Shown here piece by piece: positions 45,844 to 64,000 of a stretch of 64,000 nucleotides of DNA. The translations under genes and the position numbers were made by a program. The first letter of the stretch is position 1, and each line of letters opens with the position of its first letter. The stretch comes from Magnetococcales bacterium. Its GTDB lineage: Bacteria > Pseudomonadota > Magnetococcia > Magnetococcales > UBA8363. The notes beneath the pieces were generated by a model. That model was given only the letters and a program-made list of their open reading frames with translations, was not told the origin of the DNA and made no database searches. Location: NCBI GenBank assembly GCA_015228925.1, contig JADGCQ010000008.1, positions 1-64,000 on the forward strand, read 5' to 3'.

Positions 45844-46725
45844 GTGCCGACCGTTTCGACTGCCCGCCAACGCTGGAATCAACTCATGGCCGAATTGCAG
45901 GTTCGCAAAAAAATCACTCTGGACTTTGAGAAACTCCGCTCCCGTGGCGTTTTGACACCGGACTCGGGCCGAAGTGTGGTAGCCGAGGAGTATCGGATCA
46001 TCAAGCGACCGCTTCTACTGGGCGGTTTGGGTAGCGACAGCGATAAGTTCGACAAACGCAAACGGAAAATGATCATGGTGACCAGTGCCTTCCCAAAAGA
46101 GGGCAAAACCTTCACCGCAATCAACCTGGCCATGAGTCTGGCAGCGGAAATGGATTCGACGGTTCTATTGGTTGACGGGGATGTGGCCAAACCATCGGTG
46201 GCGCGTCTATTGGGTTTCAAGGCCAAGGAAGGGTTGATCGATTGTCTGTTGAACAAAGTGGATAATTTTACCGATGTCCTCATCCGCACCAATGTCCCCA
46301 AGTTGATGATTCTCCCCTCTGGGCGGAGGCACCATCATGCCACGGAATTGTTGGCCAGTGAAAACATGCGCCTGTTGCTCGACCAAATCATGGATGATCC
46401 CGATCGGATTGTGGTATTTGATTCACCACCCTTGCTGGTGACGACCGAGGCCCGGGAACTGGCGCGAAACATGGGTCAGATCGTCATGGTGGTCGAGGCG
46501 GAGCGGACACCCCAATACGCCGTCAAAGATGCCCTGCAACAGCTTGACAATCTTGAGATTGTTGGATTGGTCCTCAACAAGATTCGCAAACGTTCCAGTG
46601 GCGGCTATTACTATTATGGCTACGGTGGTTATGGCGGCTATGGCGGCTATGGCAGTTACGGTAGCTATGGCTCGGAAGAGCCACAACCCAAACGAAGCTG
46701 GATCAAGCGTCTATTTGGACTCTAG
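45844..46725 (+). CDS. Polysaccharide-associated tyrosine autokinase (CpsD/CapB-like)
   Basis: The 293-residue BY-kinase has a Walker A region in TSAFPKEGKTFTAIN, a Walker A' LLVDGDVAKPS and a Walker B VVFDSPPLL. The tail (about 258-282) is a Gly/Tyr run with repeated YGGYGG units and about eleven tyrosines, the expected autophosphorylation cluster. It pairs with the chain-length protein before it. The start is uncertain: GTG at 45844 has no ribosome site and ATG at 45886 a weak one. wecB begins 7 bases after it. Confidence 0.9.
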   Translation: MPTVSTARQRWNQLMAELQVRKKITLDFEKLRSRGVLTPDSGRSVVAEEYRIIKRPLLLGGLGSDSDKFDKRKRKMIMVTSAFPKEGKTFTAINLAMSLAAEMDSTVLLVDGDVAKPSVARLLGFKAKEGLIDCLLNKVDNFTDVLIRTNVPKLMILPSGRRHHHATELLASENMRLLLDQIMDDPDRIVVFDSPPLLVTTEARELARNMGQIVMVVEAERTPQYAVKDALQQLDNLEIVGLVLNKIRKRSSGGYYYYGYGGYGGYGGYGSYGSYGSEEPQPKRSWIKRLFGL

Positions 46726-56097: not shown

Positions 56098-56147
56098 TGG
56101 AGTCTCCATAGCCGATATTTTCACAATCCTTGAAGGAAATGGAACCC

Positions 56148-58442
56148 ATGGCACTTTCCATCAATACCAATCTTTCCTCTTTGAACGCGCAGCGGCACTT
56201 GTTGGATTCCACCGGGGAAATGAATCAGGTGTTTGCCCGCCTGAGTTCGGGTTTGCGCATCAATCGGGCGGGAGACGATGCGGCGGGATTGGCCATATCC
56301 AACCGCATGACCCTCCAGGTTAGGGGATTGACCCAGGCGGTGCGCAATGCCAACGATGGTATTTCCATCTCCCAGGTGGCGGAAGGTGCCTTGGCGGAAA
56401 CCAGCAACATGTTGCAACGGTTGAATGAACTGGCGGTACAAGCGGCCAACGACACCAATACCTCCAAGGATCGACAAAGCCTTCAGGACGAGATCAACCA
56501 ATTGCTTTCGGAAATCGAGCGGATTTCTCAAGAGACCGAGTTCAACAACTGGCCCATGCTCAACGGCAGCATTCTGCCGCTCGTGTTTCAGGTTGGGGCA
56601 CGCGAAAATCAGACCATCAACGTGCAATTGGCCGATGCCCGCGCCTCTGTTTTGCTGGCGCAGCCTGGGGTTGCCAATCCCAACGCCAAGGAAAGTCTGC
56701 TTAATCCCCAAATCAAGGGGATGCTGGTCAAGGTACCCACCACGATTTCTGCCGGATCCAAACTGTTTCATCCCGACGTAGCCGTAGGGATTCAGGCCAT
56801 CACCAATGCCAACGCCACCAGTGCATCCCCCTGGACGACCGACCCGACCGAAGTTGCCGATAGCATGGTCACGGCGTTTGGTGCGGGCATCGCGGTGGAA
56901 ACCGCCGCCGACCAAGCCCTTTCCACAGGGACCGCCACCACCCATGGCAGTGATATTGTCCGCGCCCTCACCGCAACCGTGACGGTAGCCAACGCCGTGG
57001 CGACAGCGGTGACAGCAGCGGGAGGTGCTGGCACCACGACCACCGCCATCAACGGATGGGATCTCACCAGTGCCGCCTATGACACCATCGAAGAGGTCGC
57101 CAACGCCATTACCGCTTTGGATGCCACCGTGAGTGCGGCGGAAGCCTCGGTCATCGCCGCCGCCCGGTTTGCCGCCGCCGAGACCAACGCCAGTATTTTG
57201 GATGTCCGCAACTCCGCCGCCGCCCGTTCACTCATGAATGCCGACACCGGCAATGCAATCAACTATTCCCAAGCGCAGGTGGTTGCCGCCGCCAGTTTTA
57301 AAGCGGCAGAAAGTTTGACCGGCACCACCATCACCACCCAGATTACCGCCGACAATCCTGCAAACGTTGCCGCACTGGTCACATCGGGGTTAACCGCAAC
57401 CAACGTCCCCACCGCCAACCAAGCGGCCATTGCCACGGCGATTACGGGGGCCATTCCCGGAACTGCCGAGGATGCTATCCGCGCCGCCATGAACGCCGAT
57501 GCCAGCAGCAATCTCACCAAGGATGAAGCGACCCTGATCGTCACCGCTGCCATGGCATTGGACGGCGGTTCCACGGTTGCGCAATCGGTGGCCTCAGCCA
57601 ATGCCACCGGGACCAAAGATAATATCATCCGTCAGATCGATGCCATCGCCCCGACGACGAGCATTGCCACGGTGGTGGATGTGGCAGTCAATGCCGCCGG
57701 AGTCAACGATGTTCCGGTGGGCAATGTGAACGCCGTCATCCGGGCCATTGATGCGGGTGTGAGTTTGGGACGGGATATTGAGACTATCGCTGCCCTGGCT
57801 ATGGCGGCGGATGGGAGTCGTAAGCTGACCATCGACAATGCCAAGGTCATTGCCGCTGCCGGTTTGGCCGCTGCCGCCCCAAACGGCAGTACGACCGCCG
57901 CCTCGACTGCCGCCAGCAACATGGCCAAGGTGATCAATGCCCGCGATTATGCGGTGGCCTATGCGGCCAAATATGGGGCACCCCCGACAGCGGGCAGCAT
58001 CATCATGGTCCCCGATTGGATGATCGACACCAGCGGCAATACCAAGTTTCCCCCCAGTCCCCTTATCGATGTGACGGGATCTTCCATCCCCGCCGATCCC
58101 ACGATTCCATTTTCTCAAACCACCATCACCAACGGGAGCAATCCCGCCATGGGGGGTGCGGAGGCGGCAGGGATGATGCTCGCCATCATCAGCAAGGCGA
58201 TCAACAAGGTCTCTTCCATTCGGTCGGAGTTGGGTTCCATTGAGAATCGTTTTGAGGCCAACATTGCCAACCTGAACAATGTCATTGAAAACGTCTCGGC
58301 ATCCCGTTCCAGAATTCTGGATGCCGATATCGCCTCCGAGACCGCCAACATGACCCGTATATCTATTCTGCAACAGGCGGGAACCGCCGTATTGGCCCAG
58401 GCCAACCAGCAACCCCAATTGGTACTGAAACTGTTGCAATAG
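56148..58442 (+). CDS. Flagellin with very large Ala/Thr-rich central domain
   Basis: The 764-residue flagellin has the normal D0/D1 start ([33 protein letters not shown], residues 1-150) and C-terminal D1/D0 (about 675-764, ending PQLVLKLLQ). Between them lie about 500 residues made almost only of small residues (Ala, Thr, Val, Asn, Gly). They include many short TA/VA-rich, repeat-like helices and would be surface-exposed on the filament. ATG at 56148 is chosen, with AAGGAA upstream, rather than a TTG six codons earlier. No second flagellin, FliD or FliS gene lies in the window. The 71 bases after the stop have a short ATCTTG/CAAGAT stem and T-rich tract that may end transcription. Confidence 0.94.
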
Positions 58443-58513: not shown

Positions 58514-61500
58514 TCAGTGATCTTTGTCCAATGCACTGGGAAAATTCAACTCATCGGGCATATTTTCAAGGTACGGTGGTGGTTCAATACCAAGACGTTT
58601 AAGAAGATCATCCAACAACATCCAATCCCCTTCCGGGGTTACCAGATCTCCCCGAATATAGGCCCGCAGACACCATTGCAATCGTCCTTCCCGTTTTTCG
58701 GGATGGCGGGCCAAATCTTCCAATAACACCCGATCTTCCGGGGTGCTTCTGCGGGCGATGTGCCGCGCCAGGGCAGACCACAGGGGTTCCGGGCGCTGTA
58801 ATTTTTTATAATAGGCCATTGCTTGTTGAAATGCCCTGTCATCTCCTCCCTGATGAAACGAAAGCCGACAGGCATGATGGAATAATTCTATTTCTGGTCC
58901 AAAAGGTTCTTTATTAATAGAATCATGTTCTAGCTGCCCATGGGCCAACAGAGCGCGGGTGCCTGCACGACCTGGAGACAACACTTCCGTCGTCAACAAA
59001 TCCAAATGGGAATTCCGCTTTGGGTCCATTTTGATGTCATGCGCCAAGTCATGCGCCCAGTCGCGCACCCAGTCGCGCGCCAAGTCGCGCGCCAAGTCGC
59101 GCGCCCAGTCGCGCGCCAAGTAGTGCGCCAAGTACCGCGCCAAGTCGCGCGCCAAGTACCGCGCCAAGTCGTGCGCCAAGTCGTGCGCCCAGTCGTGCGC
59201 CAAGTCGTGCGCCAAGTACCGCGCCAAGTCGTGCGCCAAGTACCGCGTCAAGTCGCGCGCCCAATCACGCTCCAAGTCACGCGCCAAGTCACGCGATTTC
59301 CTGCTTTCAGCCCCTGGAAATAACCAGCAAAAGGAAGTTTGCCCAAGTGACAAGGCCAACTCAAAACCAAGAACAAAGAGAAGGTTTTGACCAGAAAACC
59401 CCCACTGACGGCGTCTTCCAGGCCAAGTTTGTATGAGAAGACTTTCACTCCAACCTGGCCAGATGGAAACACCGCCATTGAGGAGTCGTCCCACGGCAAG
59501 CCCCTTGTCCCCCTCTGGGGCATCATTCATGGCGTGCAGGAACAGCGTGAAGCCAGGGCGAGCATGATCACGCATTGGTTGTAAACCGATCATTTCCAAC
59601 CCTGTATTCAACCGCTGACAAGCCATCCAATTGGCATTGTTAGCTCCCTCACTCTGCCATTGGCGCTGAATGATGGCTTTACTCTCCTCTTTCCTACTGA
59701 CTTTCCAAGCGTCCAACCCTTGATCGGTACCACGTTTCCAATCTTTCGCCAGCGCAATACCACTCCTCTTAGACCACTCTTTGACATGTTTCAATAAATC
59801 ATCAGCAAGAAAAGTTCCTGCCAACCATAATCCATATTCTTCATCTTCGCATAGATGAGAAAATACTGGTTCTAACCGTTCCGGGTTGATATCAGCGACT
59901 AGGGCGGCCCAAAGACGTAATGTTTCCCACCAAAAGCCAAGGTGTCTCCATTGAGCAACCAATACAATCCGCCCTTGATCACCTTCTATGGTAGCTTGCA
60001 GATGCCAAGCGGTGAGAAATTCTTGAAAACTCAGATGGGCAAAAGAAAGTTTATAGTCAGTGCGATCCACCAACACCCCGGCGGGACCAGAAAGCCAGGA
60101 TAAGAAACCATCCTTATGGGCTGAATCCCAGTCGGACGGTAAATATTTGGCCATCTCCTCCCAGGATTGCACCAAACTTTTTCTTCCGGTTTTTTCATCA
60201 TACCCTGTTTCCTGCATCCCATGGGCCAGTGCTGCGACAACACGAAAGCGTTCGGCCCCAGAATCGGGACGCCAACGATGCCGTTCTCCCCGCACCCCCT
60301 CCTGTTCCCTACGGTCGGGCAGTGCTGACAGGAGATTATCCAAAGTGACCTGATAAAGCTTGTGCCGACGGTCCGGGAGAGGGCTGGTGCGGCTGACCAG
60401 GAGCATCATGGTCAGCAACAAAGCGGTACGGGCCAAATCATGAGCTTCGGGGGTATGAAACAATCGGTCTATAAATTCTTCGGTCGCTTTTTTCCCGGCC
60501 ACCTGATCGCTACCATGAATGTGCTGAAAAAAATTCCCGGAGAGTTTCCTGATTTCTCTATCATCCAGAGGCTGAACATCCCACACCGTAAAACCCTCAT
60601 TGTAGGTGGGACTATCGCCATACGGACGACTACTGAGAACCACCTTCATGCCACTGTTCTTTTTCATGAAAACCAACAATTTTTGACGGAAATCTTGGCC
60701 CAACTCCCCCAGTTCATCCCACCCATCCACCAATAAAACTGGAGTAACTGTTTTCGTTCTGGCAAACTGAAGGAAAAAGGCCTCTTGCCATTCTTTCAGC
60801 CCATATTCCGCCAACCACGATCCCAAAAATGATTCCAGATTATGGAATTTTTCTTCGACATTCTGCCAATACCGCGCCAAAGCTCGCAGTTCCACGAAAA
60901 ACGGAAACGTATCCTCACGTGTTAATAATTGCCGAAAGGTCCACCGCATCCAGGTGGTCTTGCCCGACCCCGCCACACCGCGCACAACCAGGGGTTTACT
61001 CAGAGATAGCACCTCTTCAGGTTCCAGTGTCTTTCCCTCTTCAAGCTTATCTGGATCATATCCCTTACCCAAGCGCAAAGAAACATACATGTTTTCCAGC
61101 GTGGCATCCACCACCTTGTCCTTTGCTGGTCCCGACGCAGCTGCCCCCACATGGCGCAAATCCCATCGGTCAAAGAGAAAAGCCAGTTTTTCCCGATATG
61201 CCCGCAAGAAAGGGGCACTCATGACACTTTCTGGCTGCGGTGCAGCAAATGGCCAGTTCTCATAACCTCGAAAAAAAATCCAGGCGTCATCAGCCGATTG
61301 AGCTACTTGATCAGGTTTTAAATTGAACAATGCACACACAACACTGACCAGCGCATTACCCGCTTTTTCCCAGTTTTCTTTCCTGAAATCGGCAAAAGCA
61401 GGCTTACTTTCCAACTTGGTTTTGTCGTCCATCCTAAAAGCATGGGGAAAACAATGATCTGGATCATGGATATGTTCAAGCCAATCGGAATTTCCTGCAA

Positions 61501-61807
61501 AAACACAGGCAATGATCTGTTTATTACCGCGAATCTTCTTAAAATTTTGAATTTCAAGTTCCACATAAGGGGATTTGGCAGATTCGGGGGTACAGAGGAG
61601 GATTAAGAACTCGGATTGTTCTAATGCAGCGACTATCTTTCCATCCAAATCGGCCCCTGCGGCAATCTTGGCGGTATCGAAAAAAATAGTTTCATCGTTC
61701 AGTTCATTTTTAAAGCGTTCGATGGAAAACAATCGTTTACGCAACCATTGGGCTTGGTCGGTATTCTCCCGACTGTAGCTGATAAACGCCTTATATGGAA
61801 ACCCCAT
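58514..61807 (-). CDS. TIR-NACHT STAND protein with tandem tetrapeptide repeats
   Basis: The 1097-residue protein has an N-terminal TIR_2-type domain (about 1-165; AFISYSREN at the start, and the probable NADase Glu85 in SPYVELEI). A NACHT NTPase follows: Walker A GVAGSGKT (277-284), Walker B VLLVDGWDE (357-365), sensor VVLSSRP (389-395) and the FAHLSFQEFL end of the module near 595. A helical region leads to 21 tandem tetrapeptides [L/W]-A-[R/H]-[D/Y] (841-924) and a unique 170-residue tail. In other bacteria TIR-NACHT proteins act as phage sensors that deplete NAD on activation; that role here is inference. The start lies 10 bases after the beta-propeller/TPR gene, so the two are probably one operon. 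No transposase is nearby. Confidence 0.88.
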   Translation of the reverse strand: MGFPYKAFISYSRENTDQAQWLRKRLFSIERFKNELNDETIFFDTAKIAAGADLDGKIVAALEQSEFLILLCTPESAKSPYVELEIQNFKKIRGNKQIIACVFAGNSDWLEHIHDPDHCFPHAFRMDDKTKLESKPAFADFRKENWEKAGNALVSVVCALFNLKPDQVAQSADDAWIFFRGYENWPFAAPQPESVMSAPFLRAYREKLAFLFDRWDLRHVGAAASGPAKDKVVDATLENMYVSLRLGKGYDPDKLEEGKTLEPEEVLSLSKPLVVRGVAGSGKTTWMRWTFRQLLTREDTFPFFVELRALARYWQNVEEKFHNLESFLGSWLAEYGLKEWQEAFFLQFARTKTVTPVLLVDGWDELGELGQDFRQKLLVFMKKNSGMKVVLSSRPYGDSPTYNEGFTVWDVQPLDDREIRKLSGNFFQHIHGSDQVAGKKATEEFIDRLFHTPEAHDLARTALLLTMMLLVSRTSPLPDRRHKLYQVTLDNLLSALPDRREQEGVRGERHRWRPDSGAERFRVVAALAHGMQETGYDEKTGRKSLVQSWEEMAKYLPSDWDSAHKDGFLSWLSGPAGVLVDRTDYKLSFAHLSFQEFLTAWHLQATIEGDQGRIVLVAQWRHLGFWWETLRLWAALVADINPERLEPVFSHLCEDEEYGLWLAGTFLADDLLKHVKEWSKRSGIALAKDWKRGTDQGLDAWKVSRKEESKAIIQRQWQSEGANNANWMACQRLNTGLEMIGLQPMRDHARPGFTLFLHAMNDAPEGDKGLAVGRLLNGGVSIWPGWSESLLIQTWPGRRRQWGFSGQNLLFVLGFELALSLGQTSFCWLFPGAESRKSRDLARDLERDWARDLTRYLAHDLARYLAHDLAHDWAHDLAHDLARYLARDLARYLAHYLARDWARDLARDLARDWVRDWAHDLAHDIKMDPKRNSHLDLLTTEVLSPGRAGTRALLAHGQLEHDSINKEPFGPEIELFHHACRLSFHQGGDDRAFQQAMAYYKKLQRPEPLWSALARHIARRSTPEDRVLLEDLARHPEKREGRLQWCLRAYIRGDLVTPEGDWMLLDDLLKRLGIEPPPYLENMPDELNFPSALDKDH
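59036..59287 (-). repeat. 12-bp minisatellite encoding 21 [L/W]A[R/H][D/Y] units
   Basis: Twenty-one contiguous 12-base units run from 59036 to 59287 without a gap. Coding-strand units read TTGGCGCGCGAC with changes mainly at codon 3 (CGC/CAC), codon 4 (GAC/TAC) and codon 1 (TTG/TGG). Because the unit is a multiple of three, gain or loss of units would keep the frame and only alter protein length. Confidence 0.95.
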
Positions 61808-61817
61808 GACTCCCCCA

Positions 61818-64000
61818 TCATTTAACCAAAGGTTTGGCTTGCAACGCCATCATAATCGTTTCATAACCTGTGGTCAACTCTGAGGGAACTTCCAGGGGTT
61901 TCCAACGCCCTTCCATCCTTTGAAGGGCTTGCCGGTTCAGCGTAAAATAATCGCCTAAATATTGTCCCTGCTGAAAATGTTGTCTGGCTTGCGATAATTT
62001 TCCATGGCGTTGATTGGCCAAGCCCAGAAGAAGATGGATCACCGCCATATCCCGATGGGCATCACGGGGGGCCTGTTTTTCCACCTCGGAAAAGTCGGTC
62101 TCAATATGGTTGGGATCCAATAACATTTTGCGAATCACCCGATGGCCCGGACCAAAATTGGCATCATCCGGGTTATACGCCCGCTCGATACTCTCCCGCT
62201 TGATCACCTCCGGCGTCCCCAACAACAACGCCGAATAAATCCCAAACTTTTCCAACCAACGGGGATTCATCACCGAAGGTTCCAAAAATTCCTCAATCGC
62301 CAACGAAGATGCCGTCCATTTGAATAGGGTCTCAAATTGTCCCGCCTCCCAAAAACTGATCTGAAACATCAAGTGCAACATCGTCTGGTCCGGCATCTCC
62401 CGCAAACCATCCAGCACAACCCGCATATGGTCGAATAACGCTTGACTATCCCCCCCATTTTCCCACTTGCTGTGAAACACATTGGCACTCGCGGTGACAT
62501 GATTCAACCGCGATAATTTTTGAAATTCCTCTTTTCCCGATTGTTCCGCCAAGTGTGATTCCCACGCCGATTTTTCATTCACCTGCTCCAACGCCTCCGC
62601 CACCAACCCCATCCCCTGCAACGCCTGCGAATAATTGTCAATCAATACCGTATCCCACGGGCGCAACCGAACCGCCTCCTTCAACAACAACGCCCCCGTC
62701 TCTCCCAAGCCATTGTCCTTCATCACCTTCGCCCGCTGCACCATCTCATCCACGCTCAACGTCCCCAAGTCGGGATGAACCCCCGTGATGTCGGGCAATT
62801 TTACATCCTTCAAACCATCGATAAAAATCACCCCCTGAGGCGTCCCCAAGGCCAAGGTATCCTCACCCTCATCATAGGCCTGACTCAAGATCGGGGTCGT
62901 CAAAGGTAACGTGCGATAATTGGCATGGGAATCTTCCAAACCGTGAATCGTCAACGATCCCCCCGCATCCCCAGCCAGCAACAAAACCCCCGCCTCGGAA
63001 TCCTTCCACGCCATCAACGTCGTCGCCGATGAAACCCCATTCTCAATGACTTTTTCCACCTTCCAGGTGTTGGTGTTCAACAGCGCAATCTGACCGCTCG
63101 CCAACGCCAAAGCGACCCGATTCCCCCCCGGAATCGAGGTCATGTCCAGGACAATCCCCCCCGGCAACGCCGTCTCGCTGATGATTTTGCGGGTGTTTAA
63201 ATCAAACTGAATCACCTTCCCTTCCGCCGCTCCTTGCCAGCGAACATTAACGGCAATCAGAATGCGCCCCGGTGTCGGCAACACAATAAAATTATTAATC
63301 TCTCCGGTCACCAGCCACTGGGCATTGTCATGATTTTCCGCCAACAGAAAATAAGGGGTCAAACCGTTCTCCCCCAGCCGATAAATGCCGCTCCCCTTTT
63401 GGCCAAATCGCTGGGATACCACCACAAAATCGGGGGAAACAAAGCCAATGAAATGGATGGAATCCCCCAAGGATTGCGCCGTCAATACTTGGTTTTTCTC
63501 CGGGTGTCCCGGGACAACCCGTTTCACCTGCCCATCCGCCGTCCCCACCAAAAACTGACCATCCGGCAGCACCGCCGCTACCGTCGCCCCCTCCGAACCC
63601 GCAACCATTTCCGGCAAACTCGCCTCATCGGCAAACCGTTGCAAGATCCCATACCCCTTGGCCAAACATTGATGGTCCGCCAATAAGGAAGGGCCAACCA
63701 TGGCAAAGGTTTGAATCATCCGCGCCTGATTCACCGTGATGCGCTCGGTCGGACCCTGCAACGCCCCACACACCATGGCATACCATGCGTCCCCCTCCTT
63801 CCCCTTCCACAACTGCCGCACCGGCAATACCGTGGGGATAAAATGCCGATCTTCCACCGGCAAGATCTCATACACCGCCCCCTGGACAATCAAACCAAAC
63901 AGATGCCCCTCATCCGAATAAGCCACCTGACTGAACCGCTCCGGGGCTTCATAAACCATGGTTTCCCGCCCACTGGCCAGTTCCCACTCCACCAAACCCG
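61818..64000 (-). CDS. Beta-propeller / TPR protein, N-terminus beyond window
   Basis: At least 726 codons are present and the frame is still open at the window edge. The first 430 residues visible read as WD40- or PQQ-like propeller strands: GLVEWELASGRE, VAAVLPDGQFLVGTADGQVKR, VALALASGQIALLNTNTWKVEKV. The middle (about 445-520) has TPR-like helix pairs (KDNGLGETGALLLKEAVRLRP). The rest is helical, TPR-like. No enzyme motif is seen; an effector or sensor domain could lie in the missing part. It ends 10 bases before the TIR-NACHT gene. Much of the visible 5' part is strongly G over C on the coding strand. Confidence 0.8.
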   Translation of the reverse strand, partial: GLVEWELASGRETMVYEAPERFSQVAYSDEGHLFGLIVQGAVYEILPVEDRHFIPTVLPVRQLWKGKEGDAWYAMVCGALQGPTERITVNQARMIQTFAMVGPSLLADHQCLAKGYGILQRFADEASLPEMVAGSEGATVAAVLPDGQFLVGTADGQVKRVVPGHPEKNQVLTAQSLGDSIHFIGFVSPDFVVVSQRFGQKGSGIYRLGENGLTPYFLLAENHDNAQWLVTGEINNFIVLPTPGRILIAVNVRWQGAAEGKVIQFDLNTRKIISETALPGGIVLDMTSIPGGNRVALALASGQIALLNTNTWKVEKVIENGVSSATTLMAWKDSEAGVLLLAGDAGGSLTIHGLEDSHANYRTLPLTTPILSQAYDEGEDTLALGTPQGVIFIDGLKDVKLPDITGVHPDLGTLSVDEMVQRAKVMKDNGLGETGALLLKEAVRLRPWDTVLIDNYSQALQGMGLVAEALEQVNEKSAWESHLAEQSGKEEFQKLSRLNHVTASANVFHSKWENGGDSQALFDHMRVVLDGLREMPDQTMLHLMFQISFWEAGQFETLFKWTASSLAIEEFLEPSVMNPRWLEKFGIYSALLLGTPEVIKRESIERAYNPDDANFGPGHRVIRKMLLDPNHIETDFSEVEKQAPRDAHRDMAVIHLLLGLANQRHGKLSQARQHFQQGQYLGDYFTLNRQALQRMEGRWKPLEVPSELTTGYETIMMALQAKPLVK

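What the first reader, a model, noticed from the sequence alone, without database searches (positions are those of the whole stretch)
59036..59287. 21-unit tetrapeptide repeat inside a NACHT protein
Residues 841-924 are an unbroken run of [L/W]-A-[R/H]-[D/Y]. With a 4-residue period the Arg/His and Asp/Tyr positions can pair along a helix, so the run could be a long, stiff, charged alpha-helix or a solenoid-like spacer between the sensor and the C-terminal tail. I recall similar Ala-Arg-Asp-Leu runs in some cyanobacterial NACHT proteins, but have not checked this.
Basis: partly seen in the sequence, partly recalled or inferred. Interest (0 to 1): 0.75.

Follow-up and report, generated by a model that had tools for sequence, protein, structure and literature searches.

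The report
Hypervariable four-residue repeat in immune-like protein
A bacterial protein built like an immune receptor (TIR enzyme, NACHT switch, sensing end) carries 21 near-identical four-residue repeats whose number and wording differ sharply between relatives while the protein around them stays recognisable, so the repeat may be a fast-evolving part of the sensing end, although this has not been tested.

Summary
Residues 841-924 of a 1097-aa TIR-NACHT protein (58514-61807, minus strand) are 21 tetrapeptides spelt by a 12-bp tandem repeat; 18 units fit [LW]A[RH][DY] exactly. The host is a Magnetococcales bacterium (metagenome assembly).

The same NACHT core and C-terminal domain occur in relatives with a TIR or a metallophosphatase at the N-terminus, and the tract sits at the same place: about 6 to 30 units, with other alphabets (V/F, LASD, W/M), decayed, or absent. 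In relatives whose downstream domain is 60-70% identical, tract length or wording changes sharply. The exact 4.0-residue period survives in two strongly diverged tracts, marginally in a third. LARD-type tracts share one DNA spelling (TKG GCG CGC KAC), although GCG is only 5-29% of alanine codons outside the tracts. An unrelated NACHT family in the same order carries dipeptide [LR][AD] arrays with similar behaviour.

Best reading: a rapidly turning-over repeat segment in the sensing half of an NLR-like defence protein, comparable in evolution to the WD repeats of fungal HNWD receptors. AlphaFold draws helices, but mostly below pLDDT 50, so the stiff-helix idea is unproven. Sensing and anti-phage roles are inferred. 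A variable-length spacer is the main rival.

The parts
58514..61807 (-). TIR-NACHT protein, 1097 aa
   Evidence: ORF; Pfam TIR_2 2.4e-10 and NACHT 1.1e-7
61490..61786 (-). TIR domain, residues 8-106; the YVELE stretch at 81-85 resembles the usual TIR glutamate motif
   Evidence: Pfam TIR_2 above cut-off; motif position; reading of the Glu is from general knowledge
60539..60994 (-). NACHT NTPase, residues 272-423; Walker A GVAGSGKTT at 277, Walker B-like LLVDGWDELGE at 358
   Evidence: Pfam NACHT above cut-off; motif positions
59288..59890 (-). helical region before the tract, residues about 640-840, moderately conserved
   Evidence: alignment A1, AlphaFold2 helices for residues 700-840
59036..59287 (-). 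tract of 21 tetrapeptide units [LW]A[RH][DY], 12-bp DNA unit TKGGCGCGCKAC and variants
58517..59035 (-). C-terminal domain (residues 925-1097), mostly confidently helical, no Pfam family; found 18 times in 13 of 48 Magnetococcales genomes
61818..63998 (-). 3' part of the upstream gene: 1272-aa TIR protein with beta-propeller matches; ends 10 bp before the TIR-NACHT start, probably one operon

Best explanation
The tract is a fast-turnover tandem-repeat segment inside the C-terminal, presumably ligand-sensing half of a bacterial NLR-like (TIR-NACHT) defence protein. Shown here: the tract sits at one fixed place between a helical region and a conserved C-terminal domain; between species it expands, contracts and changes wording much more than its downstream flank; its units are homogenised at DNA level; the N-terminal effector is exchanged (TIR or metallophosphatase) on the same NACHT and C-terminus. 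Inferred: tandem duplication, deletion and recombination between units, and perhaps between loci or species, generate the variants; the repeats form an extended, probably helical surface whose length and mix of Leu/Trp, Arg/His and Asp/Tyr tune what is recognised; recognition releases the NACHT switch, which oligomerises and turns on the TIR NAD+-degrading effector, killing or arresting the infected cell.
For: Same location in relatives with unit numbers from about 6 to nearly 30 and differing alphabets. Related pairs differ sharply in the tract: L042/L050 flanks 65% and 67% identical, tract 20% (array versus none); L039/L040 post-flank 71%, 27 units versus 6; L035/L046 post-flank 68%, V/F units versus L/W units; L036/L044 post-flank 64%, tract 35%. 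The 4.0 period is kept in the diverged tracts L043 and L044 and reaches its 95% shuffle limit in L041, so the register probably matters at protein level. Units are homogenised: tract codons are nearly uniform while the same residues outside are not, e.g. Ala GCG 18/18 in the tract versus 11/84 outside in the window gene. Effectors swap: TIR in window, L037, L042; metallophosphatase in L035, L036, L039, L040, L041, L043, L047. A second NACHT family of the order carries [LR][AD] arrays in the same relative place, including in a single-contig 4,719,581-bp genome. Precedent: fungal HNWD NACHT proteins, whose repeat number and sequence set recognition specificity and evolve by unit exchange plus diversifying selection (PMC2873952).
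Against: No functional data. No strain-level comparison was possible, so the turnover rate is unmeasured. Counted by variant type, synonymous changes are not depleted (28 of 118, 24%; mutational opportunity 20-39% per array), so diversifying selection on residues is not demonstrated; nonsynonymous variants only occupy more copies (398 versus 59), and copies are not independent. Residue order in the tracts shows no helical-face pattern beyond unit shuffles. No known sensor fold was found by structure search, but the model is weak. One homologue (L042) has no recognisable repeat.
Confidence: 0.45

Rival explanations
1. Variable-length spacer: the tract is a charged helical arm that sets the distance between the NACHT/helical body and the C-terminal domain; its wording is free as long as it stays helical and soluble, and it does not itself recognise anything.
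For: Length varies while both flanks are kept; AlphaFold2 draws helices across it; residues A, L and R favour helix (general knowledge); the structured conserved domain after the tract could be the real sensor.
Against: A spacer would not obviously need an exact 4.0 period held in diverged tracts rather than a 3.6 pattern, nor aromatic residues in a large share of units, nor would it tolerate prolines in one homologue if a single stiff helix were required. Helix confidence is low.
Confidence: 0.3
2. Tolerated slippage: a 12-bp microsatellite-like expansion in a permissive inter-domain loop with little function.
For: DNA repeat with several frames open, prone to slippage; synonymous share by variant type is near the neutral expectation; one homologue lacks the repeat (L042).
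Against: Present at the same site across several families of the order, with frame and 4-residue register kept and with different alphabets in L035 and L044; a similar chemistry recurs in an unrelated NACHT family.
Confidence: 0.13
3. DNA-level function: the unit DNA itself (for example as a recombination substrate) is what is selected, and the peptide is secondary.
For: A codon-degenerate pattern over 299 genomes listed LARD-type tracts in essentially one spelling, TKG GC[G/A] C[G/A][C/G] KAC; tract Ala is mostly GCG in all 12 tetrapeptide arrays although it is 5-29% of Ala codons outside; same-residue codon identity in the adjacent domain is only 0.28-0.54 for L, A, R, D.
Against: V/F, LASD and W/M tracts change the DNA but keep the peptide grammar; no unusual single-strand folding (z -1.7); exchange of units between loci explains the shared spelling without a DNA function.
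Confidence: 0.07

Closest known systems
Fungal HNWD / NWD receptors of Podospora anserina (NACHT + highly conserved WD40 repeats)
   Same: NACHT STAND protein with differing N-terminal domains and a C-terminal repeat array varying in number and sequence, with internally homogenised units (PMC2873952, PMC4986451)
   Different: WD40 units in a beta-propeller, with shown allele specificity and positive selection at known surface positions; here 4-residue units of unknown fold, and neither specificity nor positive selection shown
Bacterial NLR-related bNACHT anti-phage proteins
   Same: central NACHT with Walker motifs, N-terminal effector, C-terminal helical region (PMC12169576)
   Different: no match of the C-terminal part to a Pfam or NCBIfam domain, and no tetrapeptide array described in the passages read; anti-phage activity untested here
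DGR-diversified NACHT/CLec proteins of multicellular bacteria (PMC10907252)
   Same: NACHT conflict proteins with a hypervariable, putatively antigen-sensing C-terminal part
   Different: diversified by adenine-directed reverse transcription in a C-type lectin fold; here tandem repeats, no reverse transcriptase on the contig and two-state substitutions not centred on adenine
Dipeptide-array NACHT proteins of Magnetococcales (L053, L097, L110, found here)
   Same: NACHT followed by a low-complexity array of [L/R/W/Q][A/D] in the C-terminal third; LARD can be read as LA-RD of the same grammar
   Different: unrelated flanking C-terminal domain, 6-bp unit, different codons (CKG GMT)

Membership tests
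bacterial NACHT / NLR-related protein | NACHT module above curated cut-off with Walker A and B | tested here: met
   Pfam NACHT 32.3 bits against cut-off 26.7; GVAGSGKTT at 277, LLVDGWDELGE at 358
bacterial NACHT / NLR-related protein | N-terminal effector domain | tested here: met
   TIR_2 2.4e-10; homologues with TIR or metallophosphatase
bacterial NACHT / NLR-related protein | anti-phage activity | not testable with these tools
   inferred from domain make-up only; PADLOC gives only weak TIR-region matches, among them TIR-NLR at E 0.041
HNWD-like receptor with high internal repeat conservation | NACHT plus C-terminal array of highly conserved repeats with repeat-number variation | tested here: met
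   (between species, not between strains)
HNWD-like receptor with high internal repeat conservation | WD40 (or ANK/TPR) repeat fold | tested here: not met
   no repeat-family match in Pfam over the tract; unit is 4 residues; so it is not an HNWD member
HNWD-like receptor with high internal repeat conservation | positive diversifying selection at fixed positions of the unit | tested here: inconclusive
   nonsynonymous variants dominate by copies (398:59) but not by type (90:28, near opportunity)
DGR target | reverse transcriptase and template repeat nearby, adenine-directed variation | tested here: not met
   RVT_1 matches only on other contigs of the genome; variants are TTG/TGG, GAC/TAC, CGC/CAC; template repeat not searched
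single alpha-helix / coiled-coil spacer | heptad-like 3.5-3.6 periodicity or i/i+4 opposite charges | tested here: not met
   period is 4.0 in intact tracts and in L043 and L044, marginal in L041; identical residue types at i, i+4
single alpha-helix / coiled-coil spacer | confident helix prediction | tested here: inconclusive
   helical in two AlphaFold2 models but mostly pLDDT < 50

The most novel reading that the evidence does not exclude
Magnetococcales use minimal two- and four-residue arrays as rapidly rewritten recognition surfaces of NLR-like proteins. The array DNA is exchanged between loci and species or held in one spelling by a dedicated process, so that each protein carries a short string over a small alphabet (Leu/Trp by Asp/Tyr) that specifies what is sensed.
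Probability: 0.12. Interest if true: 0.85.

Novelty: new variant of a known kind. Interest (0 to 1): 0.55.

Why it matters
If the tract is a sensing surface, it would be a small, synthetically simple hypervariable receptor module in a bacterial relative of NLRs. Units could be swapped one at a time to ask how repeat number and wording set specificity. It would also give bacteria a repeat-shuffling route to receptor diversity beside reverse-transcriptase mutagenesis. Even as a spacer, a protein segment with an exact 4.0-residue period held over divergence poses an open structural question.

Tried and rejected
Amphipathic-helix ordering of residues within tracts: no excess power at 94-108 degrees over unit shuffles in nine of ten arrays; L038 alone p 0.04. 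Absence of synonymous variation as proof of diversifying selection: true of several clean arrays (L035, L037, L040, L045, L046, L050, L053) but not of the whole set by variant type, so not claimed. DGR origin: no reverse transcriptase on the contig. DNA secondary structure: z -1.7. PDB sequence search of P0001: nothing at E <= 0.01; a LARD consensus matched only a few chains weakly. Foldseek of the C-terminal model: nothing at E <= 0.001. The LARD-array pattern in viral contigs: none. The CKGGMT pattern in viral contigs is unspecific because it catches ordinary hexanucleotide repeats. A first phylum-wide tetrapeptide pattern was badly chosen, as it excluded Trp and Tyr, and was replaced. The library searches made turned up no paper whose title or abstract describes the array.

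Full report
Observation. The minus-strand ORF 58514-61807 encodes 1097 residues. Residues 841-924, window 59036-59287, are 21 tetrapeptides; codon by codon they read TTG/TGG, GCG, CGN/CAY, GAY/TAC, with three exceptions at position 2 (E, T, V). TRF scores the 12-bp array at 307 with 21.2 copies and no indels. The two-unit pattern occurs 15 times in the genome, all here, and never in the reversed control.

The protein. Pfam finds TIR_2 (8-106, E 2.4e-10) and NACHT (272-423, E 1.1e-7), both above the curated cut-offs, and no family above cut-off after the NACHT domain. Walker A is at 277 and the Walker B-like motif at 358. Ten bases upstream on the same strand ends a 1272-aa TIR protein with beta-propeller matches. 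PADLOC and NCBIfam give only weak matches. The neighbour on the other side is a flagellin.

Host and spread. Named records that hold the C-terminal domain are all Magnetococcales metagenome assemblies. In 48 genomes of the order the domain occurs 18 times in 13 genomes. A tetrapeptide pattern that allows all codons for L/W (and neighbours), A, R/H, D/Y found tracts only in this order among 299 Pseudomonadota genomes. One of the six genomes hit (G020) has a different sequence, reading R-A-[RH]-D.

Relatives. The match to the window protein usually begins near residue 190-200 because the N-terminus is exchanged: TIR in L037 and L042, metallophosphatase in L035, L036, L039, L040, L041, L043 and L047. 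The tract lies in the same place in the relatives that cover it. Unit types: LARD/WARD/LARY (window, L037, L039, L040, L045, L046), mixed LARD with S and N at position 3 (L048), VARD/FARY (L035), LASD/LARY (L036), FASD/YARD (L038), LARD/WARV (L050), WEQD/MALN (L044), decayed (L041, L043), none (L042). Unit counts run from about 6 (L040, L045) to nearly 30 (L039, L044).

Flanks against tract. L042/L050 have 65% and 67% identical flanks and a 20% identical tract, one an array and one not. L039/L040 have a 71% identical downstream flank and 108 against 23 tract residues. L035/L046 (68%) differ in the whole position-1 alphabet. L036/L044 (64% downstream, 36% upstream) share 35% of the tract. The tract is therefore hypervariable relative to its downstream flank, between species. 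Population data were not available.

Period. Hydrophobicity power in the window tract peaks at 90 degrees, i.e. 4.0 residues (31.5 against a shuffle 95% limit of 7.8). It stays at 90 in the diverged tracts L043 (13.5 against 7.3) and L044 (23.2 against 8.1, with an equally high peak at 180 degrees), and lies at the limit in L041 (8.3 against 8.3, at 91 degrees). L042 shows nothing. An alpha-helical face would be expected to draw diverged tracts towards 100 degrees. The four-residue register is thus probably selected in the protein, but what it folds into is open. AlphaFold2 with 15 and with 13 sequences draws two helices across the tract, mostly below pLDDT 50, next to a confidently predicted helical C-terminal domain.

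DNA spelling. Within tracts, residues use almost one codon each; outside, the same genes do not. GCG is the main tract alanine codon in all 12 tetrapeptide arrays although it is 5-29% of alanine codons outside; TTG, CGC and GAC behave likewise in most. In the adjacent C-terminal domain, codons for shared L, A, R, D agree only 28-54% of the time between relatives. Homogenisation inside an array does not by itself keep the consensus spelling constant between species. Exchange of units between loci and species, or a constraint on the DNA, is needed; I think exchange the likelier, but neither is shown.

Selection. By variant type, 90 nonsynonymous and 28 synonymous variants were counted over 16 arrays, close to mutational opportunity; by copies 398 to 59. 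This does not prove diversifying selection, because copies are not independent.

Second family. Other Magnetococcales NACHT proteins (L053, L097, L110) and the fragment L111 carry up to 57 dipeptides [L/R][A/D], plus W and Q in L110, almost wholly in CTG/CGG/CAG/TGG and GCT/GAT codons, before unrelated C-terminal domains. One lies in a single-contig genome of 4,719,581 bp, so it is unlikely to be an assembly error. LARD itself fits that two-residue grammar (LA-RD). One of nine cyanobacterial plasmid NACHT proteins examined has two longer LARD-containing units.

Interpretation. The combination of a STAND switch, exchangeable effectors and a hypervariable, internally homogenised repeat region in the C-terminal half is how fungal HNWD/NWD receptors are built; there repeat number and sequence define recognition specificity (PMC2873952; also PMC4986451). 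The tract resembles that class in its evolution, but it is not a member, since the repeat is not WD40, ANK or TPR. DGR-driven diversification of NACHT proteins (PMC10907252) is a different mechanism and is not supported here. A spacer remains a serious rival.

Caveats. Most genomes are metagenome assemblies in many contigs, and several contigs end inside or beside tracts (G002 C78/C125, G039 C46, G001 C44, G019 C28), so unit numbers may be wrong in places. L046 and L047 are probably two halves of one gene, unproven. Some loci were read only in stretches.

Noticed in passing
61818-63998 and L034:122-3937: 1272-aa TIR protein with beta-propeller matches directly upstream of the TIR-NACHT gene, 10 bp gap, same strand; similar TIR proteins of 1284-1290 aa elsewhere in the genus (G007:C62, G002:C141).
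   Followed up: partly
L053:4357-7452, L097:1673-4765, L110:1485-4706, L111:2854-3462: A second Magnetococcales NACHT family with dipeptide [L/R/W/Q][A/D] arrays of up to 57 units spelt almost only as CTG/CGG/CAG/TGG + GCT/GAT; L111 is a fragment with yet another C-terminus.
   Followed up: partly
L113 (G015:C13, about 34.9-36.5 kb): Long hexanucleotide tract (CKGGCT-like) open in more than one frame, giving Leu/Ala/Arg/Gln/Val or Ser/Gln/Asn/Pro/Leu-rich products; not obviously a NACHT gene.
   Followed up: no
L123:2413-4581: Acaryochloris marina plasmid pREC4 NACHT protein with two longer units containing KEDRDLARDLALDG, a different period from the window's tract.
   Followed up: no
56130-58442: Flagellin with a roughly 530-residue Ala/Thr-rich insertion between the N- and C-terminal flagellin domains, next to the TIR-NACHT gene.
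   Followed up: no
L051:2439-4265: 609-residue open frame beginning with ELAEELAEEIPEELAED-type acidic repeats, in another Magnetococcales genome.
   Followed up: no
46618-46671: Gly/Tyr-type repeat (GGCTATGGC units, 54 bp) reported by TRF.
   Followed up: no
G000:C11:59372-60013 and 61818-62912: A reverse-transcriptase domain about 2 kb from another NACHT gene in the same genome.
   Followed up: no
58940-59323 (+): The antisense strand of the tract is an open frame (127 aa), as in some homologues; explained by the 12-bp period free of stops in this frame.
   Followed up: partly
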